Assembly: GCA_963812945.1 (NCBI GenBank)
Contig: CAWEXD010000008.1
Location: 682,001-746,000 of the forward strand
Length of the DNA: 64,000 bases
Reading direction: 5' to 3'
Source of the DNA: DASRDR01 sp963812945 [NCBI: uncultured Candidatus Rokubacteria bacterium]
GTDB lineage: Bacteria; Methylomirabilota; Methylomirabilia; Rokubacteriales
The notes under the pieces are model-generated. The model did no database searches. It was not told the DNA's origin and was given only the letters and a program-made list of their open reading frames with translations. Positions 29,227 through 42,673 of this stretch are shown here, one piece after another. Position 1 is the first letter of the stretch. Each line of letters starts with the position of its first letter. The translations under genes were made by a program, and so were the position numbers.

Positions 29227-30204
29227 ATGAGCACGCGACGAGCGTTCCTGATCCTGGCGCTAGGACTCCTGGCCGCGCTCCCCGGGGGCGCGTGGGGGCA
29301 AGCCTATCCGAACCGTGCCATCGAGATCGTGGTGCCGTACGCGCCCGGCGGGGGCACGGACATCATGGTGCGGCAGATCGTCAAGGTCCTCGAGGAGCAG
29401 AAGCTGGTCACGGTTCCCGTCACGGTCAACAACCGCACCGGGGGCAGCGGCGTGGTCGGCAAGTCCTTCGCCATCAACCGGCCCGCCGACGGCTACACGC
29501 TGGTCGCCGTCGACGCCGGGAACTGGCAGCAGGAGCTCCAGGGCAACGCGACCTGGAACTACCGGAAGGACTTCACCTACATCGCGCGCATGGTCACCGA
29601 CGTGAACCTGCTCATCGTCCGCAAGGAGTCGCCGATCAACAGCTTGCAGGAGTTCGTGGCGGCCGCCCGGGCCAAGGGCAAGGGCGGGCTCTCGGTGGGC
29701 GGGACCAATGTCGGCCAGGTCGACCACATCGCGAACATCAACCTCGCCAAGGCCGCGAAGGTGGACCTCACGTACGTGCCCTTCAAGAGCGGCGGCGAGG
29801 TGACGACGAACCTCCTCGGCGGTCACGTCGACGCCGCGTGGGCGAACCCGAATGAGTGCATCGGGCAGCTGGAGGCCGGGCAGGTGCGGGCCCTGGCCGT
29901 CGGGGACGAGGAGCGGCTCAAGGGGCTGCCGAAGATCGCCACGATGAAGGAGCTCGGCGTGTCCATGGTCTCGAACCAGTGGCGCGCCCTTGGCGGCCCG
30001 GGCAACCTGCCGAAGCCGGTGGTCGACTTCTGGGTGAACGCCCTCGACAAGGTCCGGAAGACCGATAGCTGGAAGAAGGGCTTCCTCGAGAAGAGCGTGC
30101 TCGAGGACGGCTGGCTCATCGGCGACGACTTCCTCAAGTCCGTCGATCGCGAGATGGAGATCGACAAGGGCGTCTTCGCCGAGCTCGGCATGCTGAAGAA
30201 GTGA
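29227..30204 (+). CDS. tctC: Tripartite tricarboxylate transporter receptor (Bug/TctC family)
   Basis: Periplasmic receptor for a carboxylate, 325 residues. Signal peptide MSTRRAFLILALGLLAALPGGAWGQ with likely cleavage after GAWGQA. The Bug family pattern YPNRAIEIVVPYAPGGGTDIMVR follows, then NRTGGSGVVGK, and GGHVDAAWANPNE. A strong GGAGGAGGGG precedes the ATG. tctB and tctA follow in the same direction, so this is a complete transporter. A hairpin downstream of the stop may separate high receptor expression from the membrane subunits. Ligand unknown. Confidence 0.92.
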   Translation: MSTRRAFLILALGLLAALPGGAWGQAYPNRAIEIVVPYAPGGGTDIMVRQIVKVLEEQKLVTVPVTVNNRTGGSGVVGKSFAINRPADGYTLVAVDAGNWQQELQGNATWNYRKDFTYIARMVTDVNLLIVRKESPINSLQEFVAAARAKGKGGLSVGGTNVGQVDHIANINLAKAAKVDLTYVPFKSGGEVTTNLLGGHVDAAWANPNECIGQLEAGQVRALAVGDEERLKGLPKIATMKELGVSMVSNQWRALGGPGNLPKPVVDFWVNALDKVRKTDSWKKGFLEKSVLEDGWLIGDDFLKSVDREMEIDKGVFAELGMLKK

Positions 30205-30205
30205 G

Positions 30206-30222
30206 CCGGGGCCTCTCCCCGG
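30206..30222 (+). terminator. Hairpin after tctC
   Basis: CCGGGG (30206-30211) pairs with CCCCGG (30217-30222), loop CCTCT, no T-run. Likely an attenuator or mRNA-stabilising hairpin between receptor and membrane genes. Confidence 0.4.
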
Positions 30223-30283
30223 AGGCACTGGCCCCGCGACCCGCGTCGCAGGACGCGGGCCGCGCGGGCAGGCGCGGAGCGCC

Positions 30284-30736
30284 GTGATCTTCACGGGCGG
30301 CCGCGCGGTCGGCCTGGGTCTGGCCCTGGTGGGTCTCGTCGCGATCTATCTCGCGAGCGGGTTCCGCGAGGGGACCGCGACCGGCGGCCCCGGCGCCCGA
30401 TTCTTTCCCATCCTGCTGGCCGTCATCGTGATCGTCCTGGGCGCCGTCCTGGCCCTCCGGCCGCCGGCCTCCGAGGGTCCGGCGGATCCCCTCGTGCCAG
30501 ACGGTTCGCGGCGGGCGATGTGGACGCTGGGGGCGATCCTCGGGTACGTGCTCGCCTTCGAGCGCCTCGGTTTCCTGCTCGCGACGGTTCCGTTCCTGGC
30601 GATTCTCCTCCTCGTCCACAGCGAGCGGCGGTGGCCGGTCGTCCTGGCGGTCGCGCTGGGGGCGACCGGCGCCACCTACGCCCTCTTCGCGATGTGGCTC
30701 GGCGTGCCGCTGCCTCCAGGCGCGCTCGGCCGGTGA
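30284..30736 (+). CDS. tctB: Tripartite tricarboxylate transporter small membrane subunit
   Basis: Small membrane subunit of 150 residues with four hydrophobic segments. The PGARFFPILLA pattern after the first segment is typical of TctB. GTG start. It lies between tctC and tctA, and the tctA start is only 19 bases after its stop. It is needed with TctA for carboxylate import driven by an ion gradient. Confidence 0.88.
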   Translation: MIFTGGRAVGLGLALVGLVAIYLASGFREGTATGGPGARFFPILLAVIVIVLGAVLALRPPASEGPADPLVPDGSRRAMWTLGAILGYVLAFERLGFLLATVPFLAILLLVHSERRWPVVLAVALGATGATYALFAMWLGVPLPPGALGR

Positions 30737-30755
30737 CGCGCGCCCGCAGGTCTCC

Positions 30756-32264
30756 GTGACCGACCTCTTCCAGCACCTCGCCCTCGGGTTCGGGGTCGCG
30801 CTGACCCCGGTGAATCTCCTCTACTGCTTCGTGGGCGTCGTGGTCGGCACGGCCATCGGCGTCCTGCCGGGGATCGGCCCGGTGACCACCGTGGCGATGC
30901 TCGTGCCGCTGACCTTCGGCATGAGCCCGACGGCGGCGCTGATCATGCTGGCGGGAATCTACTACGGCTCCCAGTACGGGGGGTCGACCACCGCCATCCT
31001 CATCAACACGCCGGGCGAGACGTCTTCGGTAATGACGTGCCTCGACGGCTACCAGATGGCCCGCCAGGGGCGGGCCGGTCCGGCGCTCGGCATGGCGGCG
31101 ATCGGCTCCTTCGTCGCCGGCACCGCGAGCGTGATCCTCCTCATGCTGCTGGCGCGCCCCCTGGTCCGCGTCGCGCTCGAGTTCGGGCCGACGGAGTACT
31201 TCGCGATCATGCTGCTGGCGCTCCTGACGCTCGGGGGGCTCACGGGGGAGTCGGTGGTCAAGGGCCTCCTCATGGCCGGCTTCGGCCTCCTCCTGGGGAC
31301 GATTGGCGGCGACCCCTTGACGGGCACTCCGCGGTTCACGTTCGGCGTCCCGAGCCTCCTCGACGGACTCGAGTTCCTGCCCGTGACGATCGGCCTGTTC
31401 GCGGTGGCGGAGGTGCTGACCACGGCGACGCGCTCGCTGGTGCACGACGTCTACGCCGCGCCGATCCGCGGCTTGCTCCCGACCCGGGCGGACTGGTGGG
31501 CGTGCCGGTGGACCCTCCCGCGGGCGAGCCTCATCGGGTTCGTGGTGGGCGTTCTGCCGGGCGCGGGGGCGACGCTCGCGTCGATCATCGCCTACCTCGT
31601 CGAGAAGCGCGTGTCCCGGCATCCGGAGCGCTTCGGGACGGGGGTCATCGAGGGGGTGGCGGCGCCGGAGACCGCGAACAACGCGGCGAGCGGCGGGGCG
31701 CTGGTGCCCCTTCTGACGCTCGGCGTGCCCGGCTCGGGCACGACGGCCGTCATGCTCGGCGCGCTCATGCTCTGGGGGCTCAGGCCCGGGCCCCTCCTGT
31801 TCGAGAAGAATCCGGAGCTCGTCTGGGGCCTCATCGCCAGCATGTACATCGGCAACGTCCTGCTGCTGATCCTGAACCTCCCGCTGATCGGGCTCTGGGT
31901 GCGGCTCCTGTCGGTGCCGCCCCGCATCCTGATGCCCCTGATCCTCCTCTTCTGCTTCACTGGCACCTACGCCGTCAGCGGGAACCCCTTCGACCTCTGG
32001 GTCATGGTCGTCTTCGGGGTGATCGGCTTCGCCCTCCAGCGCTACGGCTATCCGGTGGCTCCGATCGTGCTCGGGCTCATCCTGGGGCCGATGCTCGAGA
32101 CGCACTTCCGCCGGGCGCTGATCGTCTCCCGCGGGGACTACGGGATCTTCCTCCAGCGCCCGATCGCGGCCGGGCTCCTGGCGGTCGCGGCGATCTATCT
32201 CCTCGCGCCGATCGTCGTGTGGCTCTGGCGGCGGCGGCGCGTCGTGGCTCCCGCGGGCGGGTAG
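30756..32264 (+). CDS. tctA: Tripartite tricarboxylate transporter large permease
   Basis: Twelve-segment permease of 502 residues. Family patterns are GVLPGIGPVTTVAMLVPLTF, the YYGSQYGGSTTAILINTPGE loop with the transport-linked GGST/INTPGE motif, and PETANNAASGGALVPLLTLGVPGSGTTAV in the second half (PGSGTTAV). GTG start. It is the channel subunit working with the TctC receptor upstream. Confidence 0.93.
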   Translation: MTDLFQHLALGFGVALTPVNLLYCFVGVVVGTAIGVLPGIGPVTTVAMLVPLTFGMSPTAALIMLAGIYYGSQYGGSTTAILINTPGETSSVMTCLDGYQMARQGRAGPALGMAAIGSFVAGTASVILLMLLARPLVRVALEFGPTEYFAIMLLALLTLGGLTGESVVKGLLMAGFGLLLGTIGGDPLTGTPRFTFGVPSLLDGLEFLPVTIGLFAVAEVLTTATRSLVHDVYAAPIRGLLPTRADWWACRWTLPRASLIGFVVGVLPGAGATLASIIAYLVEKRVSRHPERFGTGVIEGVAAPETANNAASGGALVPLLTLGVPGSGTTAVMLGALMLWGLRPGPLLFEKNPELVWGLIASMYIGNVLLLILNLPLIGLWVRLLSVPPRILMPLILLFCFTGTYAVSGNPFDLWVMVVFGVIGFALQRYGYPVAPIVLGLILGPMLETHFRRALIVSRGDYGIFLQRPIAAGLLAVAAIYLLAPIVVWLWRRRRVVAPAGG

Positions 32265-33166: not shown

Positions 33167-33529
33167 GTGGCAAAGGTCATGGTCGTGGACGATGCGGTGG
33201 CCGACGTGAAGCTCATCGAATCCATCCTGCGCGGCGCGGGATACCAGGTTGTCTCGTACGGCGACGGCGAGGGCCTGGAGCAGAAGGTCGTCAGCGAGCG
33301 ACCGGACGTCCTCCTGCTCGACATCGTGATGCCGAAGCGCAGCGGCTACGAAGTCCTCCGGAGCCTCAAGAAGGACGCCGTCACGAAGAGCACTCCGGTC
33401 GTGCTGGTGACTTCCAAGAACCAGGCGAGCGACGAGTTCTGGGGACGACGCCAGGGCGCCGACGACTACCTCGGCAAGCCGTTCAGCCCGGAGCAGCTCG
33501 TCAGCATGGTCCGCCGGTTCGTGCGGTAG
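33167..33529 (+). CDS. Single-domain response regulator (CheY/PilH-like)
   Basis: Receiver of 120 residues. The acidic pair is Asp8-Asp9 and the phospho-acceptor is Asp52 in LLLDIVMPKRSG. The Thr is in VLVTSK, and the Lys is in YLGKPF. So it should be phosphorylatable. The GTG at 33167 is the only start that gives the normal CheY N-terminus (MAKVMVVDD), with AGGGAGG upstream. It is the first gene of the chemosensory operon and probably the output or sink of the CheA-like kinase. Confidence 0.88.
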   Translation: MAKVMVVDDAVADVKLIESILRGAGYQVVSYGDGEGLEQKVVSERPDVLLLDIVMPKRSGYEVLRSLKKDAVTKSTPVVLVTSKNQASDEFWGRRQGADDYLGKPFSPEQLVSMVRRFVR

Positions 33530-33544
33530 CGCGAGAGGCCGGCC

Positions 33545-34039
33545 GTGAGCGCGCCCGACCCAAGCCCTCACGGACCGGTGAGGGCGTGCGTGTTCACGGT
33601 GGCGGGCCGGCAGCTCGCCGCCGACATCCGGCATACGCGCGAGGTCGTCGTCCTCCCGGACCGCACCCCGGTCCCGCGGGCACCCGCGCACGTCCTGGGC
33701 GTGGCCAACCTGCGGGGCTACATCGTTCCCATCGTGGACATCCGTCACCTCCTGGGCCTGCCCCCGCGCCCGCCGAGCGAGGCGCCCAGGACGCCGCGGA
33801 CCATCATCCTGGAAGGCGACGGAGCCCAGATCGCGATCCTGACGGACGAGGTGCTGGGCCTGGAGTCCTTCGACGAGATTCTGCCGGCCCCGGCAGCGGC
33901 GGCCGACAGCGCGGAGGGGTCGGACGCGGCCCCGGCGCTCGGCCTTCTGCGGCGAGGTGACGGGATGGCGACGCTACTCGACGTGCCTGGGCTCGTCGAG
34001 GCGGTCCGCGTGAGACCGCCGAGTCGACCCGATGCCTGA
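33545..34039 (+). CDS. CheW-like coupling protein
   Basis: Scaffold that links receptors to the kinase. It is 164 residues, GTG start. The CheW fold is recognisable from FTVAGRQLAADIRHTREVV, then HVLGVANLRGYIVPIVDIRHLLGL, and IAILTDEVLGLESF. It starts 15 bases after the CheY stop and precedes the receptor. Longer than minimal CheW because of an Ala/Pro-rich loop near residue 120. Comparable to PilI of type IV pilus chemosensory systems. Confidence 0.86.
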   Translation: MSAPDPSPHGPVRACVFTVAGRQLAADIRHTREVVVLPDRTPVPRAPAHVLGVANLRGYIVPIVDIRHLLGLPPRPPSEAPRTPRTIILEGDGAQIAILTDEVLGLESFDEILPAPAAAADSAEGSDAAPALGLLRRGDGMATLLDVPGLVEAVRVRPPSRPDA

Positions 34040-34121
34040 CGACCCACGCGTGACCGCGCATCGAGCCGGTGCCGGTCCGCGCCAGGATCCGACGCGCGCG
34101 CGGCGCGAGGAGGAAACGACC

Positions 34122-36476
34122 ATGACGGGCAGGGCCAAGGACGATCGCAGGGCGAAGGGCGCCGGAATCCGCTCCAAGCTCACGGGGCAGATGCTCCTGG
34201 TCGGCCTCGCGCCCCTCGTGCTGCTGGGCGTGTTCGGCTACCTGGTGCTGCGCCGCACGACGGACGCGTTCGACCAGAACCTCCAGGAGTCGGCGCAGCT
34301 GACGCTGACCAATGCCGCGAAGGACCTCGCCGGTCAGCTCGACACCTACATGGAGGAGCGGGTGAGGGACGTGCTGACCTGGGCGTCGGACCCCCTCGTG
34401 GTGGATGCGGCGGCCCGAGCCGACGCGTCGGCCCGGGCGCACGGGTGGCCCGGCTACCCCGAGATCGCCGGCCAGACCGACGCCATCAAGCGGATCGAGC
34501 TCGAGATGGCCGGAGTGCGGAGCCTGAACCCGCTCCCGGGGGCGACCCAGTATCTCAAGGACCAGGGCGCGCGCTCGAAGGTGTTCAAGGAGGTCTTCTT
34601 CACGGACAAGAGCGGCTACAACGCCGCCATCAGCAACATGACGTCCGACTTCGTCCAGAGCGACGAGGGCTGGTGGGTCAGCGCCTGGACCAAGGGCATC
34701 GACATCGGCAAGGTGGGCTTCGACGAGTCGGCGGGCGTGTGGTCGATCGACGTCAGCGCCCGGATCGACAATCCCCGCACCGGGGAGCCGCTCGGCGTGC
34801 TCAAGGCCGTGCTCGACATCTCGGCCGTGCAAGTCCTGGCGACTCAGACGGCGCAGAAGCTGCCCGGCTCGGACGTCAAGGTCATGGTTCGCCGCACCGG
34901 CATGCTGCTCGCGGACACCGGGGTGAGCCACGACCGCCAGTTCATCATGGCGGACCTCGGCAACCTCCTGAAGAAGAAGGTGCGGGCGGCCGAGCTGGTG
35001 GCCAAGGAGGGCGCCAAGGCCGGGTACCTGATCGACGAGGGCGACACCACCGGCACGCGGCGTGACCAGGTGGTCGGCTACGCGGTCGGCGCGGGGAAGG
35101 GTCAGTTCCGGGATCTCCCCGACTTCGAAGGCCTCGGGTGGGGCACGATCGTCGGCCAGGACAAGACGGTGGCCTTCGCCGCCCTGGACCAGCTCGGGGC
35201 CCAGCGGCGCACCCTGACCGGGCTCCTGCTGGGCGCGGTCTCGCTGGCGGCCGTGGCGCTGGTCGCGGTCGGGGCCGTCCTCGGCCGCCGCATCAGCCAG
35301 CCCCTGCTGGAGCTCAGCCACGCGTCGCGCCGGCTCAGCACCGGCGATCTGGGGGTCGAGGTGCCGGTGCGGTCGACGGACGAGATCGGCCAGCTGGCCC
35401 ACACGTTCAACGAGACGGTCGTGCGGCTGCGGGGCCAGGTTCGCACGGAGGCCGAGCGCGACGACGAGCGGCGCAAGCGCGAGGAGCTGCAGCGGAACAT
35501 CGCCCGCTTTCTGGACACCGTCACGGAGATCGCCGGAGGCGACCTCACGAAGCGCGGCGAGGTGACCGCCGACGTGCTCGGCAACGTGGTGGACGCGATC
35601 AACGTCATGGTCGACGGCATCGAGACGATCATCCGAGACGCCCGGCAGGCGACGCTGCAGATCGGCGCGAGCGCGAGCGAGATGATCCAGGCCAGCGAGC
35701 AGATGGCCACCGGGGCACAGGAACAGTCCCGTGAGTCCCTCAGCGTCTCGGGGGCCGTGGACGAGCTGACCCATTCCGTGCGACAGGTCGCCGAGAGCGC
35801 CGACGCTTCCGCGCGTGCGGCCCGCGAGACGCTGGACGCCGCTCAGAAGGGCGACGGAGCCGTGCGGGCGAGCCTCGAGGGGATGCAGCGCATCCGCGCA
35901 GAGGTTCAGGCCATCTCCAGGAAGATCAAGAGCCTGGGCGACCGGTCCCTCGAGATCTCGAACATCGTCAACACCATCGAGGACATCGCGTCCCAGACCA
36001 ACCTCCTCGCGCTCAATGCCGCGATCGAGGCGGCGGGGGCCGGCGAGGCCGGGCTTCGCTTCGCGGTCGTCGCCGACGAGGTGCGGAAGCTCGCGGAGCG
36101 CTCGGCGAAGGCGACCAAAGACATCGCCGTGCTCATCAAGAACGTGCAGGCCGAGACCCAGGAAGCGATCGTCGTCATGGAGCAGGGCACCCGCGAGGTC
36201 GAGAACGGCTACGGCGTGACCGTCGAGGCGGGCGAGAGCCTCAAGCAGATCGCGGAGATCTCCGGGCGCTCGGCCGAGCTGGCCCAGGAGATCTCGCTGG
36301 CGACGCAGCACCAGGTGCGGAGCTCGGAGGGCGTGGCGGTGGCCATGCAGTCGATCACGACCGTTGCGGTGCAGACCGAGCAGGGCGTGCTCCAGACACG
36401 AAAGACCGTGGACGAGCTGGTGAAGCTCGCCGACACCCTGCAGGCCGAGCTGGCGCGGTTCCGGCTGGCCAGCTGA
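34122..36476 (+). CDS. Methyl-accepting chemotaxis protein, PilJ-like tip, periplasmic cache-like domain
   Basis: Transmembrane receptor of 784 residues. The first membrane segment is at about residues 22-42, followed by a periplasmic domain of about 320 residues that looks like a double cache domain, then a second segment at about 365-390. A HAMP domain (ISQPLLELSHASRRL) and a second HAMP-like stretch come next. The cytoplasmic hairpin tip reads TNLLALNAAIEAAGAGEAGLRF followed by AVVADEVRKLAERS, closer to PilJ (AAMAGEAGRG) than to Tsr (AARAGEQGRG). The ATG at 34122 has GAGGAGGAAAC before it; an ATG at 34032 overlapping the cheW stop is less likely. No CheR-binding pentapeptide at the C-terminus. 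Confidence 0.88.
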   Translation: MTGRAKDDRRAKGAGIRSKLTGQMLLVGLAPLVLLGVFGYLVLRRTTDAFDQNLQESAQLTLTNAAKDLAGQLDTYMEERVRDVLTWASDPLVVDAAARADASARAHGWPGYPEIAGQTDAIKRIELEMAGVRSLNPLPGATQYLKDQGARSKVFKEVFFTDKSGYNAAISNMTSDFVQSDEGWWVSAWTKGIDIGKVGFDESAGVWSIDVSARIDNPRTGEPLGVLKAVLDISAVQVLATQTAQKLPGSDVKVMVRRTGMLLADTGVSHDRQFIMADLGNLLKKKVRAAELVAKEGAKAGYLIDEGDTTGTRRDQVVGYAVGAGKGQFRDLPDFEGLGWGTIVGQDKTVAFAALDQLGAQRRTLTGLLLGAVSLAAVALVAVGAVLGRRISQPLLELSHASRRLSTGDLGVEVPVRSTDEIGQLAHTFNETVVRLRGQVRTEAERDDERRKREELQRNIARFLDTVTEIAGGDLTKRGEVTADVLGNVVDAINVMVDGIETIIRDARQATLQIGASASEMIQASEQMATGAQEQSRESLSVSGAVDELTHSVRQVAESADASARAARETLDAAQKGDGAVRASLEGMQRIRAEVQAISRKIKSLGDRSLEISNIVNTIEDIASQTNLLALNAAIEAAGAGEAGLRFAVVADEVRKLAERSAKATKDIAVLIKNVQAETQEAIVVMEQGTREVENGYGVTVEAGESLKQIAEISGRSAELAQEISLATQHQVRSSEGVAVAMQSITTVAVQTEQGVLQTRKTVDELVKLADTLQAELARFRLAS

Positions 36477-36534
36477 CCATCGCGCACGGACTGACGCGAG
36501 CGCTCGAGATGAGGAGGACCGCGCGGGGCGCGCC

Positions 36535-39453
36535 ATGACAGAGCACGACCCGGAGTTCCTGCGCAGCATCTTCCTCATGGAAGCGTGGGACACCGTGGCG
36601 ACGGTGGAGGAGGGGTTGTCGCGCCTTCTCCAGCCGGCGCCGACGGGCGAGACGCTCGCGCCGCTGGTCGTCGTGGCGCACCGGCTCAAGGGAGCGGCGG
36701 GCCTCCACGGCTTCCCGGTGACGGCGGAGGTGGCCGGCTTCCTCGAGGCCGTGCTGGAGCGCCTCCCCGCGCGAGGGGACGGCGTCCGCGCGCACGGCCT
36801 CGTGCTGGATCTCCTGACCACCCTCAAGACGGTGCTCGACGGCATCGCGGCCACGGGCGGGGAAGACGCCGCGGCCAGCGAGGCGTTCGTCGCCGCGCAT
36901 CCGGGCGCCTTCGGGCTCGGCGAGGCGACCGGCTCGCCGGCCCGGTCCCCGGCCCGCGGCCCTGGTGACACCCTGCTCCGCGAGGTGCGGGATTTCTTCG
37001 CCGAGCACTCCGACGTCCTCGCCTACTTCGGGCCCGAGGCGGCCGAGCATCTCGAGACGATCACCCGCTCGCTTCTGGCGCTGGAGCAGACCGGCCCCCA
37101 CCTGCCAGATGCGCCAGATCCGGACAATGCGGAGCTCCACGCCCTGTTCCGGGCGGTTCACACGCTGAAGGGCGCGGCGTACACGGTCGGCTGCGAGGTC
37201 GTGGGCCGGATGGCGCATCGGGCGGAGGACATCCTCGGCGCCATCCGCGAGCGGCGGCTCCGCTGGTCTCCCGACGTGATGGACACGCTGTTCCGGGCGA
37301 CGGACGCCATCAAGGTGCTGCTCGCGACGTCCGACGCGCCGGGGGGAGATCCGGCCGAGGTGATCGAGGGCGCCATGCAGGCGCTGGCCGCCGTGACGCT
37401 GGACGACGTGGCGCCGGTCGAGGCGCCTCTCGTCGCGGTCAGGCCGGCGGTCCCGGCGGCGGCGCGCCTGGAGCCGGCGGTGCCCGGTTTTTCGGCGAAC
37501 CGCCCGGCGCGCGAGGCGAGCCCCCCGCTGGAGGCCGGCCGCCCGGCCCGGACCAGCATCCGGGTGAGTGTCGGGCGGCTCGACGCCCTCATGAACCTGG
37601 TCGGCGAGCTGGTCATCGCCCGGAGCCGTCTCGACCGGCGCTTCCGTCAGCTCGAGCGGCTCGACGACCTTCTGACCGTGAGCCGAGCTCGGATGAGCCG
37701 GACGGTGCGGGACTTCGAGACCAAGTATCTCGATCCGCGCCTGAGATTCTCGGACGACGACGTCTCGCCGCCCCGGCCGGATGCGCCGGGCCGGGACGGG
37801 TTCGCGCCGGTGTCCGCCCTCTTCGAGGAGCTCGAGTTCGACCGCTACGACGACTTCAACATCCTGGCCCGGACGATCGGCGAGCTCTCGGCCGACCTCG
37901 GCGAGATCCAGGCCGAGCTCGCGGCGACCATCCGCAGCATCGAGGAGGACACGCGGCACGTCCAGCGTCTGACCAGCGGCCTGCGGAGCGAGATCACGCG
38001 CGCTCGGATGGTGCCCATCGGCAAGCTGTTCGCGCGGTTCCCGCGGCGGATCCGCGAGCTCGCCGCGTCCACGGGGCGCGCCGTGCGGCTCGAGGTCACG
38101 GGCGAGGCGGTGGAAGTGGACAACGCGGTGATCGAGCAGATCGCGGATCCCCTGCTGCACCTGATTCAGAACGCCGTTGTCCACGGGATCGAGCCGGAGA
38201 CCGAGCGCCTCGCGCGCGGCAAGCCGCCGGAGGGCCGGGTGACCCTCACCGCGTACCAGCGCGGCGGCGCGATGTTCGTGGAGATCGAGGACGACGGGCA
38301 GGGCATCGACGTGGCGGCGGTGCGCGAACACGCCGTCGGGCGGGGGATGCTGTCCGCCCAGGCGGCCATCGGCCTGGGTGACCGCGAGGCCCTGAGCCTC
38401 TTGTTCCTTCCGGGATTCAGCACGGCGCCGAGCGTGACGGACGTCGCCGGGCGGGGGGTGGGACTCGACGTGGTCCGCACCAACGTCGCCCGCGTCAACG
38501 GGGAGGTGGGCATCGAGACCGATCCGGGCGTCGGGACGCGATTCACGCTCCGGCTGCCGCTCGCGCTGGCCATCTCCGACGCGCTCTTGGTCCGGGCGGG
38601 CGCCGAGACGCTCGCCCTGCCGCTCAACGCCGTCCGTCAGATCGTGGCCTGCGGACCCCGGGAGATCCGCGGCGTGGGGTCGAGCGAGATGGTGCGGGTG
38701 GAGGGCCAGCTCCTGGACCTCTCTCGCATGGATCGCATCCTCGGGCTCGTCGCCACGGAGCCCGCCTCCGCCCTCCCGGTGCTGCCCGTCCTGGTCATCC
38801 GCTCCGGCGGGCGGTCCTTTGCCGTCGCCGTCGACGCGATCGTCGGCAAGGAGGAGATCGTCGTCAAGCCGCTCGGCGGGATCCTGGCGGAGCTGGCCCC
38901 GTTCGGGGGCGCCACGATCACGGGTGAGGGGCGCGTGATCCTCCTGGTGGATCCGGCGCGCCTCCTGGCGCTGGCCGAGAGCGGCGCCGGCCGGGTGGGA
39001 CCGGCGCAGGGAGCGGTCGACCCGGCGCCGCGCTCCCGCGAGCCGGCCGTTGCCACCCGGCGCGTCCTGCTGGTCGATGACTCGGTCAGCGTTCGGCGGT
39101 TCGTCGGGCACATGCTCGAGAAGGGCGGGTTCGAAGTCCTGACCGCCAACGACGGAGGGGAGGCGCTCGAGCGCCTGGTCGACACGACCGTGGACGTCGT
39201 GATCACCGACCTCGAGATGCCCCGCGTCAACGGGTACGAGCTCATCGAGAACCTCAAGCGCCGTCCGTCGACCCGGGAGGTGCCCGTCGTCGTCCTGACG
39301 ACGCGAGCCGGGGAGAAGCACTGGGCGTTGGCCCGCCGGCTGGGAGTGCGGCACTACGTCGCGAAGCCGGTGGACGAGGAGACCTTCGTGCGCCTGATCA
39401 CCAATGTCGCCGCCGGCGCTCTCGAAACCGAGCCGAGCGGAGCCCGCGGATGA
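36535..39453 (+). CDS. Hybrid chemosensory histidine kinase CheA with two Hpt domains and C-terminal receiver (ChpA-like)
   Basis: Kinase of 972 residues. Hpt domain 1 has His49 in AHRLKGAAG, and Hpt domain 2 has His209 in VHTLKGAAYTVG. A dimerisation helix begins near 343 (SVGRLDALMNLVGELV). The ATPase contains LLHLIQNAVVHGIE, EDDGQGID and GRGVGLDVV. The CheW-like domain is at about 680-810, and the receiver has Asp892 in VVITDLEMP with Lys in VAKPVD. The region between dimerisation and ATPase holds an unusual insertion (about residues 375-440). The architecture recalls ChpA of the Pil-Chp system, with fewer Hpt units. It starts 58 bases after the receptor. Confidence 0.92.
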   Translation: MTEHDPEFLRSIFLMEAWDTVATVEEGLSRLLQPAPTGETLAPLVVVAHRLKGAAGLHGFPVTAEVAGFLEAVLERLPARGDGVRAHGLVLDLLTTLKTVLDGIAATGGEDAAASEAFVAAHPGAFGLGEATGSPARSPARGPGDTLLREVRDFFAEHSDVLAYFGPEAAEHLETITRSLLALEQTGPHLPDAPDPDNAELHALFRAVHTLKGAAYTVGCEVVGRMAHRAEDILGAIRERRLRWSPDVMDTLFRATDAIKVLLATSDAPGGDPAEVIEGAMQALAAVTLDDVAPVEAPLVAVRPAVPAAARLEPAVPGFSANRPAREASPPLEAGRPARTSIRVSVGRLDALMNLVGELVIARSRLDRRFRQLERLDDLLTVSRARMSRTVRDFETKYLDPRLRFSDDDVSPPRPDAPGRDGFAPVSALFEELEFDRYDDFNILARTIGELSADLGEIQAELAATIRSIEEDTRHVQRLTSGLRSEITRARMVPIGKLFARFPRRIRELAASTGRAVRLEVTGEAVEVDNAVIEQIADPLLHLIQNAVVHGIEPETERLARGKPPEGRVTLTAYQRGGAMFVEIEDDGQGIDVAAVREHAVGRGMLSAQAAIGLGDREALSLLFLPGFSTAPSVTDVAGRGVGLDVVRTNVARVNGEVGIETDPGVGTRFTLRLPLALAISDALLVRAGAETLALPLNAVRQIVACGPREIRGVGSSEMVRVEGQLLDLSRMDRILGLVATEPASALPVLPVLVIRSGGRSFAVAVDAIVGKEEIVVKPLGGILAELAPFGGATITGEGRVILLVDPARLLALAESGAGRVGPAQGAVDPAPRSREPAVATRRVLLVDDSVSVRRFVGHMLEKGGFEVLTANDGGEALERLVDTTVDVVITDLEMPRVNGYELIENLKRRPSTREVPVVVLTTRAGEKHWALARRLGVRHYVAKPVDEETFVRLITNVAAGALETEPSGARG

Positions 39454-39506
39454 CACGATCGAGGGTCCCCGGCACCGCCCCGCGGCGGGTGTGGACGGAG
39501 TGAGCC

Positions 39507-39884
39507 ATGGCGAAGGTTCTGCTGGTTGACGGGGAGACCGAGCGAAGCCGCTCGATGACCGAGGCCCTCGGGACGGCCGGATTCGACGTCACCGAGGCGG
39601 CAAGCGCCTCGGTCGCGCTGACGACCCTCGAGTGGAACCGCCCGGATGTCGTCGTCAGCCAGGAGGACGTCCCCGAGCTGGACGGCTACGAGCTCTGCAG
39701 CATCATCCGCAGCGATCCCAGCACCAAGGCGCTGCCGTTCCTGCTCCTGACGTCGCCGACCGGGCCTCCGCCCGGCGCGCCGACCCGGGCCGGCGTGGAC
39801 CTCGTCCTGGGGGGGACGTTCGACGCCTCCGACGTCGTGAACCGCGTCCAGCGGCTCGTGTCCTCGGGAGGACATCATGCCTAA
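39507..39884 (+). CDS. Degenerate receiver domain protein (pseudo-response regulator)
   Basis: Receiver-like protein of 125 residues. The acidic pair DD is reduced to Asp8-Gly9. The position of the phospho-acceptor Asp is Gln52 (VVVSQEDVPELDG), and the Lys-Pro-Phe motif reads GGTFDA. Fold-defining patterns (KVLLVDGE, DGYELCSIIRS, FLLLTSP) are kept. It therefore should not be phosphorylated by the usual route and may act as a structural or protein-binding partner. It overlaps the next regulator gene by eight bases, so the two are translationally coupled. ATG start with GGAG upstream. Confidence 0.82.
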   Translation: MAKVLLVDGETERSRSMTEALGTAGFDVTEAASASVALTTLEWNRPDVVVSQEDVPELDGYELCSIIRSDPSTKALPFLLLTSPTGPPPGAPTRAGVDLVLGGTFDASDVVNRVQRLVSSGGHHA

Positions 39885-40770
39885 GGTCCTGATCGTCGAC
39901 GACAGCCTGAGCGTCCGCAAGGTGGTGGAGCGGATCCTGGAATCGCGTCAGCTCGTGGTGCTCCAGGCGAGCCTGGGGACCGAGGCGATCGAGTGCATCC
40001 AGCGCGACGAGCCGGACCTCGTCGTGTGCGACGTGCTCCTGCCCGACCGGGAAGGCTACGACGTGTGCGAGTTCGTCAAGTCACATCCGCGCTTCGACCA
40101 CACGCCGGTCCTGCTGATCTCCGGAATCGTGAATCCCGCGGTCATCGACCGCGCGGATCGGGTCGGCTCGGCCGGCGTCATGCGAAAGCCCTTCTCGGCC
40201 GAGGAGCTGACCGGCAAGGTGAACGCGCTCTTGGGGCTGGCGGCTCAGGCGAAGACTCAGCGGACCGGCGCCAACGGGACCGCCCGCCCATCGGTCGCGC
40301 CGGCCCTTCGGCCCACGCTTCCGGTGACCGCTCCACCGAACGGGATCCACCCCGTTGCGCCGACCAGGCTGCCGGAGCCGTCGCCCCTGACTCCGGCTGC
40401 GACGGTGGCCCCGAGTCCGGCCCTCAGCCTGGAAGGCTGCCTGGCGGCTCTCGCCGCGTCGGACGGTGTCCACGCGGTCGTGCTGGCGGATCGTGGCGGC
40501 CAGCTGATCGGAACGGCCGGCAGCCCGGCCGGCGCCGCGATGCTCGGCGCGGAGACCGCGTGCCTGGCCTCGGCGTCCGACGAGCTCGGCAGCGAGCTTC
40601 GGCGGGGAGCTGTCCAGGGGCTCATCCTGGAGCACGAGCACGGGCTGATGCTCGTGAGCGTGCTCGGCGAGTCCGCCGTGCTCACGCTCGTGCTCGACGA
40701 GCCGGCGTCCCTGGGGAAGGCCAGGTACTACATCAAGAAGGCCGTGCCGGACCTCCTGCGAGTGCTCTGA
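39877..40770 (+). CDS. Response regulator fused to a Roadblock/LC7-type domain
   Basis: Protein of 297 residues. The N-terminal receiver is complete: Asp8-Asp9, acceptor Asp52 in VVCDVLLPD, and Lys in MRKPFS. A Pro/Ala-rich linker spans about residues 128-180. The C-terminal domain (about 185-297) has the Roadblock/LC7 pattern: LAALAASDGVHAVVLADRGGQLIGTAG, a long helix, then GLILEHEHGLMLVSVLG and VLTLVLDEPASLGKARYYIKKAV (pattern given in parts). Roadblock domains such as MglB control small GTPases of cell polarity, so the kinase may signal to a GTPase; none is encoded here. The next gene starts one base after its stop. Confidence 0.78.
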   Translation: MPKVLIVDDSLSVRKVVERILESRQLVVLQASLGTEAIECIQRDEPDLVVCDVLLPDREGYDVCEFVKSHPRFDHTPVLLISGIVNPAVIDRADRVGSAGVMRKPFSAEELTGKVNALLGLAAQAKTQRTGANGTARPSVAPALRPTLPVTAPPNGIHPVAPTRLPEPSPLTPAATVAPSPALSLEGCLAALAASDGVHAVVLADRGGQLIGTAGSPAGAAMLGAETACLASASDELGSELRRGAVQGLILEHEHGLMLVSVLGESAVLTLVLDEPASLGKARYYIKKAVPDLLRVL

Positions 40771-40771
40771 G

Positions 40772-42673
40772 ATGGCGCACCGGCGCGCCGCGGCACGATC
40801 CCACGGCTGGGCCCCATGGCTCGCGGTGCCGGCCGCGCTGATCCTGGACGCGGCGACCGCCGCGTATCTTGCCGGGAAGCCGTTCCCGACGGGTGTCATC
40901 GTCCCCGAGATCGTCCTCTTCGCGGCGCCGCTCGTCGTGTACGGGGCGCTGGCCGCTCTGGTCTTCCGGACGCAGCCGCTCGCGATCCGGCTGACTGCGG
41001 CGGCGATCCTGCTGGGGATCCACGCGGGACTGATCGCGCTCCATACCCTCGGCTACGTCGTCCTGTGGTCGCTGCCGGCTCCGGCCGCGATCCGGCTCGC
41101 GCACCGCTGGTCGCCCTTGATCCCGCTCCTCCAGCTGATCTGGGTGCCGCTCCTCGCCCTGCCCCTGGCCGGGCTGATCCGTCGGCAGCCATCGCCGGCG
41201 CCGCGCCGGAGCCTCTCGCCACCCGGTCGGCGTGATGCGACGGCGGCCAGGGCTTCGCACCCGAGCTCGCGCGAGCGTGTTCAGCCGAGTCGCGAGGTGC
41301 GCGTCGATCCGGGTGTGCCGGAATCTGGGCCCGAGGTCCCGCCGATCGCCCTGCCCGCCGCGCCGCCCGCGGTGCTGCCCACCGTCCTCGCGGTGCCGCC
41401 CGCGGCCGTGCTCGTCGCTCCGCCGGTGGCCGTGGTCGAGGTGCCGCTCGAAGCGTCGCCGGTGGCCGAGCCGGCATCGGTCCCGACCACGCCCGTTCTC
41501 CCGATGCTGACCGCCGGGGTGGTGCCCACCGCGCTCCCCGAGATGTCGCCAGTGGCGTCGCCAACCCCGCCGCCCGTGTTGCCGCCAACCGTGCCGCCAG
41601 CGGTCTCGCCAAGCGCTTCGGAGGCCGTGGTGGTGGAGGCAAGCGCCACCGCTCTGCCCGCCCCGGTCGCCGATGTCCTGCCGCGGACGATGGCGCCCGC
41701 CCCGGTCTGGTTCGATGAGCTGGTCGATGCGTCCGCCCCGGCCGCCGCTCCGGCGCTCCCGAGCGCGGCGGAGGTCGATCAGGAGCCCGCGGTCGTCGCC
41801 GAGACCGAGGCGCCATCGTCACCGCTGCGGATCGACGTCGCGGCCACCCTTGCTTCGCCGGCGATTCCGGAGTCGGTGGCGCCGGTCCCAGCCATGCCGG
41901 GATCCCCGGCAGGCACGCGGCAGGACGAGCGGACCCGCGTGTGGGCCGCCGAGTCCCCGGTCGATCCCTATCTCGTCGCCAGGCTGTTCGAGCCCTACGG
42001 CCCGCTCCTGTCGCGCGACCGGATGGTCGTGGTGGACTGGACGCCCGGGCCGGAGGCGGCGGTCCTGTGCGCGGCACCGCGAGGAATGCTCCGGGACCAG
42101 GTCATCCGTCTCGGGGCTCGTCTCGCGCGCGCTCTCGACGCCGGGGCCGGGCCGTCGGCACCAGGCCCGGTCCGGCGCCTGTCGCTTCGCGGCCGCGATG
42201 CCGTCGTCGTGCTCACGCCGCTCGACGGCGCCATCCTGGTGGCCGCCTCTCGTCGCCGCGGCGCCCTTGCGCTGCTCGAGGTCCTCTCGGCGCGGGTGGT
42301 GCCCGGCGCGATTCCAGGGACGTCCGACGCCGTAGGCGAAGACGCGCCCGCGACGATCCTCGACATCGCCGTGTCCGGTGCGACCCGCGTGGAGACCCCC
42401 ACGGCGATCGTCGACGTCCTGGCGCCCGAGGGTGTCGGGGCGGCCGCCATGGGCGAGCTCGCGGGTCGGCTCCTGGCGGCCATCGCCGCGGCCGACGGGC
42501 CCGTGCCCGACTCCCTGAGTGTCGACCTCGGGCTTCACCGCCTGATGGTGCATCCGATCCATCCCGACGCCCGGCCGCCTCGCTTCGTCGCGGTCGTCGG
42601 GGGCCCGGAGCGCCCCGGGCTCCTCGGGCGCCGGACGGAACAGGCCGCGCGCACGCTCCGCCAAGCGTCCTGA
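40772..42673 (+). CDS. Membrane protein with long Pro/Ala-rich linker and probable Roadblock-like C-terminal domains
   Basis: Protein of 633 residues in three parts. Residues 1-135 contain about four hydrophobic segments. Residues about 135-385 are a low-complexity stretch rich in Pro, Ala and Val (VPPAAVLVAPP-type repeats). Residues about 390-633 form a folded region in which I see two units of the Roadblock-like pattern. The first is AVLCAAP, a long helix, VRRLSLRGRDAVVVLTPLDGAILVAAS; the second runs from ATILDIAV to FVAVVGG. No known family is recognised for the whole. Its ATG follows the receiver-Roadblock gene by one base, so it is surely part of the operon. It could anchor Roadblock signalling at the membrane. 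Confidence 0.68.
   Translation: MAHRRAAARSHGWAPWLAVPAALILDAATAAYLAGKPFPTGVIVPEIVLFAAPLVVYGALAALVFRTQPLAIRLTAAAILLGIHAGLIALHTLGYVVLWSLPAPAAIRLAHRWSPLIPLLQLIWVPLLALPLAGLIRRQPSPAPRRSLSPPGRRDATAARASHPSSRERVQPSREVRVDPGVPESGPEVPPIALPAAPPAVLPTVLAVPPAAVLVAPPVAVVEVPLEASPVAEPASVPTTPVLPMLTAGVVPTALPEMSPVASPTPPPVLPPTVPPAVSPSASEAVVVEASATALPAPVADVLPRTMAPAPVWFDELVDASAPAAAPALPSAAEVDQEPAVVAETEAPSSPLRIDVAATLASPAIPESVAPVPAMPGSPAGTRQDERTRVWAAESPVDPYLVARLFEPYGPLLSRDRMVVVDWTPGPEAAVLCAAPRGMLRDQVIRLGARLARALDAGAGPSAPGPVRRLSLRGRDAVVVLTPLDGAILVAASRRRGALALLEVLSARVVPGAIPGTSDAVGEDAPATILDIAVSGATRVETPTAIVDVLAPEGVGAAAMGELAGRLLAAIAAADGPVPDSLSVDLGLHRLMVHPIHPDARPPRFVAVVGGPERPGLLGRRTEQAARTLRQAS

What the first reader, a model, noticed from the sequence alone, without database searches (positions are those of the whole stretch)
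33167..42673. Chemosensory operon with Roadblock/LC7 outputs and no adaptation enzymes
Seven genes in one direction: CheY, CheW, PilJ-like MCP, ChpA-like CheA with two Hpt domains, pseudo-receiver, receiver-Roadblock, and a membrane-linker-Roadblock-like protein. CheB and CheR are missing. Roadblock domains control Ras-like GTPases (MglB on MglA) in gliding and twitching bacteria, but direct fusion of one to a CheA-driven receiver is not a standard arrangement. This suggests phospho-signalling from a chemosensory array to a polarity GTPase, and is the best candidate in this window for an undescribed system.
Basis: partly seen in the sequence, partly recalled or inferred. Interest (0 to 1): 0.8.

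Follow-up and report, generated by a model that had tools for sequence, protein, structure and literature searches.

The report
Chemosensory receiver fused to GTPase-regulator domain
An uncultured soil bacterium carries a chemical-sensing gene set whose output protein is a phosphorylation switch fused to a domain that normally controls a polarity GTPase; most relatives keep that GTPase next door, but here and in several relatives it is missing there while the switch remains.

Summary
Seven co-directional genes (33167-42673) encode CheY, CheW, MCP, hybrid CheA (two Hpt), a pseudo-receiver, REC-linker-Roadblock, and a membrane protein (orf7) ending in two Roadblock-like domains. The window is rokubacterial. 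Of 95 genomes of that class, 29 carry the REC-Roadblock, 28 with CheA upstream on the same contig; in 22 of 29 mglA directly follows orf7. That MglA type occurs in 22 of 29 REC-Roadblock genomes and 0 of 66 others. FliG is in none of the 29; PilT-family ATPases are in all 95, so type IV pili are the likely output. Five relatives lost mglA at the locus with visible junctions; in one such pair the Roadblock is under strong purifying selection (dN/dS about 0.03), and one genome has also lost the chemosensory genes but keeps REC-Roadblock and orf7. I read it as a new variant of chemosensory-to-MglA signalling, like a covalent RomR-MglC, with a detachable GTPase module. Phosphotransfer, partners and localisation are inferred; no genome is held for the window.

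The parts
33167..33529 (+). CheY-like single-domain receiver (D8, D9, D52 present; GTG start)
   Evidence: Pfam Response_reg 1.9e-24; residues
33545..34039 (+). CheW
   Evidence: Pfam CheW 1e-26
34032..36476 (+). MCP: two hydrophobic segments, dCache-like sensor (below cut-off), HAMP, MCPsignal; likely start 34122
   Evidence: Pfam; hydropathy
36535..39453 (+). Hybrid CheA: two Hpt (H49, H209), H-kinase_dim, HATPase_c, CheW, receiver
   Evidence: Pfam; motifs
39507..39884 (+). Pseudo-receiver without phospho-Asp; the C-terminal DUF4388 (PATAN) domain of most relatives is missing here
   Evidence: Pfam Response_reg 2.8e-10; residues; PATAN in relatives
39877..40770 (+). REC (about 1-120), disordered linker, Roadblock/LC7 (185-297); central output protein
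   Evidence: Pfam; AF2 model pLDDT 81.6; one open frame
40396..40767 (+). Roadblock/LC7 domain of the receiver protein
   Evidence: Robl_LC7 24.9 bits; alignment A1; profile match to solved MglB; hhalign to MglB set 7e-8
40772..42673 (+). orf7: four hydrophobic N-terminal segments, Pro/Ala-rich linker, tandem Roadblock-like C-terminus
   Evidence: hydropathy; an ORF of this type follows in the relatives; AF2
41954..42670 (+). Two tandem Roadblock-like domains of orf7 (domain 1 firmer than domain 2)
   Evidence: AF2 pLDDT 75.7, pTM 0.76; structure comparison of domain 1; hhalign between domains

Best explanation
A membrane chemoreceptor array (MCP-CheW-CheA) passes phosphate from CheA Hpt domains to receivers, among them the receiver of the REC-Roadblock protein. 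Phosphorylation is inferred to change how its Roadblock dimerises or stacks with other Roadblock dimers, notably the membrane-anchored tandem Roadblock-like protein (orf7) and, in the complete form of the locus, MglB. This sets where and when MglA-GTP can act on polar type IV pili. It works like a covalent RomR-MglC link. In the window mglA, mglB, the divergent Roadblock pair and the PATAN domain are absent from the locus, so here either the REC-Roadblock and orf7 act on their own as a polar scaffold, or a GTPase encoded elsewhere is used. Shown: gene order, domains, phosphotransfer residues, conservation, co-occurrence, losses, purifying selection in one GTPase-less pair. Inferred: phosphotransfer, Roadblock contacts, polar location, pilus output.
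For: CheA and the REC-Roadblock keep the phosphotransfer residues. Its Roadblock matches MglB. 29 of 95 class genomes have the fusion, in one frame in 27; mglA follows orf7 in 22 of 29. MglA at least 68% identical to that of L001 is in 22 of 29 fusion genomes and 0 of 66 others (Fisher 7.6e-16, not corrected for kinship). That MglA matches solved Thermus and Myxococcus MglA at 5e-67 to 9e-67. FliG: 0 of 29. Outgroup loci have RomR-like receivers in the same slot (17 of 20 translated; RomR-C has invariant Trp and Pro, passage of PMC3441718). In M. xanthus RomR binds the Roadblock protein MglC, which binds MglB (passages of PMC10329633 and PMC12719032); RomR D53E hyper-reverses and D53N hypo-reverses (passage of PMC3441718).
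Against: No mglA/mglB in the window. Five relatives lost mglA at the locus (G003, G009, G010, G014, G067) and four of them have no MglA hit at all. G067 also lost cheY to the PATAN gene and has no CheA match at E <= 1e-30, yet keeps the pair, so CheA is not needed for retention there. In M. xanthus the delta-mglC data argue that MglC is not the direct target of Frz (passage of PMC10329633), which weakens the analogy. PilT is in 95 of 95 genomes, so it does not discriminate. For orf7, Foldseek gave no significant match, VIA Z is at most 6.2, under the caution level of 8, hhalign probabilities are only 15-42% and neither domain matched the MglB profile. REC-Roadblock is frameshifted in L003 and L036. 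A sample of 297 genomes of the phylum of G020 gave no fusion among 30 loci inspected. No biochemical data.
Confidence: 0.55

Rival explanations
1. The window's locus is a remnant: the GTPase module was lost first and the remaining Roadblock genes are decaying without function.
For: REC-Roadblock is frameshifted in 2 of 6 relatives without mglA after orf7 (L003, L036) and in 0 of 21 with it (Fisher 0.043; frames). L003 orf7 is also frameshifted. The window lacks PATAN, the orf7 repeat, the binding protein and the divergent Roadblock pair. The window Roadblock is the most divergent of 14 rows (46% mean identity). Pairs of L010 (mglAB lost) with L004 and L006 have Roadblock dN/dS 0.288 and 0.206 and orf7 0.343 and 0.481, at or above the mglAB-bearing pairs.
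Against: Window ORFs are intact with strong GC3 bias. In L009/L036, both without mglAB, Roadblock dN 0.012, dS 0.403, dN/dS 0.029. The window's Roadblock-to-REC divergence ratio of 1.36 is within that of mglAB-bearing relatives, 1.07-1.49. MAG frameshifts can be assembly errors.
Confidence: 0.15
2. The window's organism has MglA and MglB elsewhere and the REC-Roadblock acts on them in trans, so nothing differs from the complete form.
For: G003 lost mglAB at the locus but has another MglA (51%) on a different contig with Roadblock matches before it. No genome is held for the window.
Against: G009, G010, G014, G066, G067 and G099 (nearest CheA) have no MglA hit at E <= 1e-10. A Ras-family search showed no MglA-sized frame in G009, G010, G014 or G099, but this test is weak: it also missed the known MglA of G087 and G003 (found those of G001 and G004). 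Completeness of these assemblies is not told.
Confidence: 0.22
3. The Roadblock is only a dimerisation module for a response regulator; it has nothing to do with GTPases, and mglAB neighbours are passengers.
For: The fusion persists, in one pair under strong selection, where mglAB is deleted. An archaeal REC output domain, NitrOD3, is reported as Roadblock-related (one passage of PMC5847659).
Against: Near-exclusive co-occurrence of the MglA type with the fusion (22 of 29 against 0 of 66) and tight gene order.
Confidence: 0.2
4. An ordinary flagellar chemotaxis operon with an odd accessory receiver.
For: CheY, CheW, MCP and CheA are present.
Against: FliG_C is in 7 of 95 class genomes and in none of the 29 with the fusion.
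Confidence: 0.03

Closest known systems
Frz - RomR/MglC/MglB - MglA polarity system of Myxococcus xanthus
   Same: Chemosensory signalling upstream of an MglA/MglB switch that controls type IV pili; a receiver with a disordered linker attached to a Roadblock protein (RomR-MglC, non-covalent there).
   Different: Here receiver and Roadblock are one polypeptide, encoded in one operon with CheA and, in most relatives, with mglA/mglB; a membrane tandem Roadblock-like protein is added. In M. xanthus mglA is not near its response-regulator partners (passage of PMC4316618), and how Frz acts on the module is called unknown (passages of PMC10329633 and PMC12719032).
RomR family response regulators
   Same: REC, disordered linker, small C-terminal module; RomR-like proteins hold the same operon slot in Nitrospirota loci.
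   Different: The C-terminus is a Roadblock, not the RomR-C helix with invariant Trp and Pro.
Pil-Chp chemosensory system
   Same: Hybrid CheA with more than one Hpt domain and a receiver; type IV pili as likely output.
   Different: No PilJ-domain match in the MCP; two Hpt rather than the many of ChpA (recalled); Roadblock outputs rather than only PilG/PilH-type CheYs (recalled).
Actinobacterial conservons (Cvn)
   Same: Kinase, Roadblock and MglA-type GTPase encoded together (passages of PMC4316618).
   Different: There a histidine kinase without a response regulator; here a chemoreceptor array with a fused receiver.
Ragulator (LAMTOR) scaffold
   Same: A Roadblock assembly that recruits Ras-like GTPases (passage of PMC10329633); p14 is the top structural match of orf7 domain 1.
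   Different: Eukaryotic, several separate chains; only fold and an analogy of layout are shared.

Membership tests
Roadblock/LC7 (gene 39877-40770) | Match over the curated Robl_LC7 cut-off | tested here: met
   24.9 bits against 23; 38.7 and 56.2 bits in relatives L001 and L004
Roadblock/LC7 (gene 39877-40770) | Roadblock secondary-structure order | tested here: met
   AF2: H185-193, E198-205, E210-215, H217-233, H237-242, E248-253, E256-263, E267-273, H276-296
Roadblock/LC7 (gene 40772-42673) | Match over the curated Robl_LC7 cut-off | tested here: not met
   No Pfam family for the window protein (E up to 1) nor for L001 and L006 (E up to 0.5)
Roadblock/LC7 (gene 40772-42673) | Roadblock fold, domain 1 | tested here: met
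   Model order H-E-E-H-E-E-E-H; top VIA-align rows are Ragulator p14, archaeal Roadblocks and MglB, Z up to 6.2; rank 16 is a Gtr-Lam complex chain I did not identify. Foldseek alone not significant
Roadblock/LC7 (gene 40772-42673) | Roadblock fold, domain 2 | tested here: inconclusive
   First helix short and poorly predicted; hhalign to domain 1 E 4e-5 to 7e-5 (36-42%) and to the receiver Roadblock 1.2e-4 to 3.9e-4 (15-28%); not searched alone
Chemosensory-to-MglA polarity system | CheA with Hpt, kinase and CheW domains | tested here: met
   motifs
Chemosensory-to-MglA polarity system | MglA and MglB genes at the locus | tested here: not met
   No match in the 64 kb window; mglA at the locus in 22 of 29 relatives. 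The window's genome is not available
Chemosensory-to-MglA polarity system | Type IV pili present | tested here: inconclusive
   PilT family in 95 of 95 class genomes at E <= 1e-50, 90 of 95 over the cut-off; the window's genome is not held
RomR | Receiver plus RomR-C helix with invariant Trp and Pro | tested here: not met
   C-terminus is a Roadblock; Trp-Pro ends are seen instead in 17 of 20 outgroup slot proteins
RomR | Direct sequence comparison with M. xanthus RomR | not tested
   I had no M. xanthus RomR sequence in hand
Pil-Chp | PilJ-type MCP | tested here: not met
   dCache-like, HAMP, MCPsignal only
Chemosensory-to-MglA polarity system | Phosphotransfer from CheA to the output receiver | not testable with these tools
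   Residues present; needs an assay

The most novel reading that the evidence does not exclude
The REC-Roadblock and the membrane tandem Roadblock-like protein form a core polar output device that does not need a Ras-like GTPase; the MglA/MglB module (and, in one genome, even the CheA array) is detachable and has been lost several times. The window would be such a Roadblock device that outlives its GTPase.
Probability: 0.4. Interest if true: 0.82.

Novelty: new variant of a known kind. Interest (0 to 1): 0.7.

Why it matters
How a chemosensory system reaches the MglA polarity switch is stated to be unknown in M. xanthus (passages of PMC10329633 and PMC12719032). Here one polypeptide joins a CheA-type receiver to an MglB-type Roadblock, in an operon with CheA and usually with MglA/MglB, so the missing step becomes an assay on a few purified proteins. 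Relatives without the GTPase are natural experiments on what Roadblock proteins do without a Ras-like partner, which bears on the idea that Roadblock-GTPase pairs are an ancient minimal module (raised in passages of PMC9481161).

Tried and rejected
Flagellar output: rejected for relatives, FliG in 0 of 29. A general loss of adaptation: rejected as a family trait, CheB lies by the locus in G002, G012, G053 and G099; some of the other loci are cut by contig ends, and CheR was not searched. Fusion widespread in the phylum of G020 (Acidobacteriota by recall): of 297 genomes 74 had a match, and none of the 30 loci inspected had a receiver in the same frame; that search scored only part of its candidates (G020: 14 of 74) and did not report the L029 fusion (31.7 bits), so it is not exhaustive. 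Nitrospirota slot proteins as hidden Roadblocks: no A1 match over the inclusion threshold except L029; a PDB sequence search with one of them listed only receivers, no RomR entry, in the 60 of 123 rows shown. Foldseek on the orf7 model: best E 0.037, unrelated entries. PilT as discriminator: useless, in 95 of 95. Ras-family search as proof of GTPase absence: weak, it missed two known MglA. Rfam and tRNA scans of the window: nothing. CheA tree: the window's place is unresolved (long branches); L038 and L114 are not in it; at least 4 changes of mglAB state over 26 labelled rows (two rows unlabelled). L116 (G099) is nearest by identity (64%) but is not shown to be a sister. dN/dS pair L107/L108 REC gave a stop from a wrong frame and was dropped. 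Paper searches: no listed title or abstract start described a receiver-Roadblock fusion beside CheA; only open-licence papers are held and I read passages of eight, so this is a weak negative.


Full report
What is there. The window (GC 71.6%) has seven co-directional genes from 33167 to 42673 with short gaps or overlaps. Pfam gives CheY, CheW, an MCP with HAMP and signalling domain and a dCache sensor below cut-off, a hybrid CheA with two Hpt domains and a C-terminal receiver, a degenerate receiver, a receiver with a Roadblock/LC7 domain (24.9 bits, cut-off 23), and a last protein (orf7) without any family match. CheA keeps both Hpt histidines and its ATP-binding motifs; the REC-Roadblock keeps D8, D9, D52, S82 and K104; the lone receiver at 39507 lacks the phospho-Asp and the lysine.

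Where it comes from. A pattern-and-tblastn scan of genome contigs with the window's CheA gave 43 loci: 15 Rokubacteria (best segments 46-55% identical) and 28 others, mostly Nitrospirota, with one Thermoanaerobaculia and one Deferribacteraceae locus. No whole genome is held for the window.

The Roadblock parts. Profile A1 of the receiver's Roadblock (14 sequences) finds solved Roadblock structures: best 7f8m (5.7e-12; titled as a Thorarchaeota Roadblock), MglB entries at 8e-10 to 2e-7, MglC only at 0.1. hhalign of A1 against 19 MglB sequences from the same loci gives 7e-8 (92%). AlphaFold2 shows REC, a linker with pLDDT under 50 over most of 136-181, and a Roadblock order. Orf7 has four hydrophobic segments at its N-terminus, a Pro/Ala-rich linker and a C-terminus modelled as two units of Roadblock order (pLDDT 75.7, pTM 0.76). 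Foldseek found nothing significant. VIA-align over Foldseek's 1000 best chains put Ragulator p14, archaeal Roadblocks and MglB at the top for domain 1, Z up to 6.2, below the tool's caution level. Domains 1 and 2 match each other (E 4e-5 to 7e-5, probability 36-42%) and domain 2 matches the receiver's Roadblock (1.2e-4 to 3.9e-4, 15-28%) over nearly full length; domain 1 does not match that Roadblock, and neither domain matches the MglB profile. I call orf7 a membrane tandem Roadblock-like protein, firmer for domain 1.

Conservation and the GTPase. Of 95 genomes of the class of G001, 29 have the REC-Roadblock (weakest 8e-44; the next hit is 7e-13 in a 172-residue frame); receiver and Roadblock share one frame in 27 of 29 and in the window. 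An orf7-type ORF follows in all 29, cut by a contig end in two (L105, L108) and frameshifted in L003. CheA lies upstream on the same contig in 28, not in G067. MglA (the L001 protein matches solved Thermus MglA at 5e-67) is encoded directly after orf7 in 21 (in G064/L112 the match is partial) and in G068, where the end of orf7 and mglA lie on a second contig: 22 of 29. G003, G009, G010 and G014 lack it although the contig continues; the contigs of G067 and G099 end 340 and 492 bases after orf7 without it; that of G066 ends inside orf7. MglA at least 68% identical to L001's is in 22 of 29 fusion genomes and 0 of 66 others (Fisher 7.6e-16, not corrected for kinship). MglB was found after mglA in 20 of the 21 single-contig loci (not L110; cut in L111). 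In 19 of these 21 another Roadblock gene (Rob2) lies on a flank, with a TPR gene beside it in 18.

Losses. In L010 the gene that follows mglB in L004 (87.5% identical) begins 80 bases after orf7, and the first eight codons of mglA remain in between; in L003 the same gene follows directly; in L009 and L036 the next aminotransferase gene follows directly. L010 keeps a fragment of the TPR gene and no Rob2 match, L036 has neither although flanking genes are visible; the upstream side is not visible in L003, L009 and L116. On a CheA tree the minimum was 4 changes of mglAB state. G067 is the extreme case: against L107 (92-97% identical DNA in pieces) it lacks the stretch from the start of cheY to the start of recrob, joined in frame at the shared receiver start, and lacks mglA after orf7; it has no CheA match at E <= 1e-30 and no MglA match, yet REC-Roadblock and orf7 are open. 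Mis-assembly at the similar receiver starts cannot be excluded. G009, G010, G014, G066, G067 and G099 have no MglA hit; in G009, G010 and G014 the receiver's Roadblock is the only Robl_LC7 match in the genome. A Ras-family search showed no MglA-sized frame in G009, G010, G014 or G099, but missed known MglA in G087 and G003. Completeness of the assemblies was not reported.

Selection without the GTPase. L009 and L036 both have mglA, mglB and the next gene missing. Between them the Roadblock has dN 0.012, dS 0.403, dN/dS 0.029 over 121 codons, against 0.093-0.261 in seven mglAB-bearing pairs (L008 used twice); REC 0.066; orf7 C-terminus 0.264, within the 0.134-0.370 of those pairs. This speaks for continued function of the receiver's Roadblock after the loss, from one pair. 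Against it: pairs of L010 with L004 and L006 give 0.288 and 0.206 for the Roadblock and 0.343 and 0.481 for orf7, and L036 and L003 carry a frameshift inside the REC-Roadblock, in L036 in the GC-rich linker, by assembly error or decay; 2 of 6 against 0 of 21, p 0.043.

What else the locus tells. The window has no match to the periplasmic binding protein, PATAN, orf7 repeat, Rob2/TPR pair, mglA or mglB of the relatives. G099 (L116), nearest in CheA (64% over 615 columns), also lacks PATAN, the repeat and mglA but has the binding protein and CheB. FliG is in 7 of 95 class genomes and in none of the 29; the PilT family is in all 95. Pili rather than flagella are the likely target.

The slot after CheA. 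Of 28 non-rokubacterial loci I translated 20 slot proteins: 17 are receiver-linker proteins whose C-terminal helix-like end holds W[ED][VI][VI]P (16 WE, L028 WD), fitting the description of RomR-C (passages of PMC3441718; M. xanthus RomR itself was not compared); two (L014, L015) look like receiver plus coiled coil by eye; and L029 is a receiver-Roadblock (Robl_LC7 0.0038, under cut-off; A1 31.7 bits) with a PATAN receiver before it. RomR binds the Roadblock MglC, which binds MglB (passages of PMC10329633, PMC12719032, PMC7949163). The rokubacterial protein thus resembles RomR and MglC made into one chain: an inference from architecture and gene position. [quoted passage not shown]

Novelty. 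Chemosensory control of MglA is known from M. xanthus, and MglA/MglB genes near PATAN proteins are in print (passages of PMC4316618). The covalent receiver-Roadblock, its operon with CheA, MglA and MglB, the membrane tandem Roadblock-like partner and the GTPase-less derivatives were not described in the passages and listings I saw (open-licence papers only). A Roadblock-related archaeal REC output domain, NitrOD3, is in print (one passage of PMC5847659). I file it as a new variant of a known kind.

Noticed in passing
L017-L043 (Nitrospirota) and L033, slot after CheA, e.g. L043:9697-10638: RomR-like receivers (receiver, long linker, end with W[ED][VI][VI]P) sit in the same operon position; 17 of 20 loci translated. 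A RomR-type regulator beside CheA would be worth its own study.
   Followed up: partly
L114 (G067:C458): Deletion from the start of cheY to the start of recrob, joined in frame, plus loss of mglA; REC-Roadblock and orf7 remain and no CheA is found in the genome. Mis-assembly not excluded.
   Followed up: partly
L029:14324-16344: Thermoanaerobaculia locus with a PATAN receiver followed by a receiver-Roadblock beside CheA; no MglA hit in this locus.
   Followed up: partly
L010:16473-16553: Deletion scar: the first eight codons of mglA remain, fused to a short tail, between orf7 and the gene that normally follows mglB.
   Followed up: yes
L001:19178-20577 (- strand) and counterparts: A further Roadblock protein beside a TPR protein whose C-terminus looks Roadblock-like by eye; no Rob2 match in L010 and L036, which also lost mglAB.
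   Followed up: partly
L001:14618-17965, residues about 345-460: Orf7 of most relatives carries one or two copies of a repeat domain without Pfam match, not detected in the window or L116.
   Followed up: no
L001:6775-8115: In most relatives a Peripla_BP_6 binding-protein gene lies between CheW and the MCP; a candidate ligand carrier for the receptor.
   Followed up: no
L118 (G003:C472:1-4261): G003 lost mglAB at the locus but has a different MglA (51%) on another contig with two Roadblock matches just before it.
   Followed up: no
window 29227-32264: Gene run just upstream that looks like a tripartite tricarboxylate transporter (TctCBA) by eye; not run through a family library.
   Followed up: no
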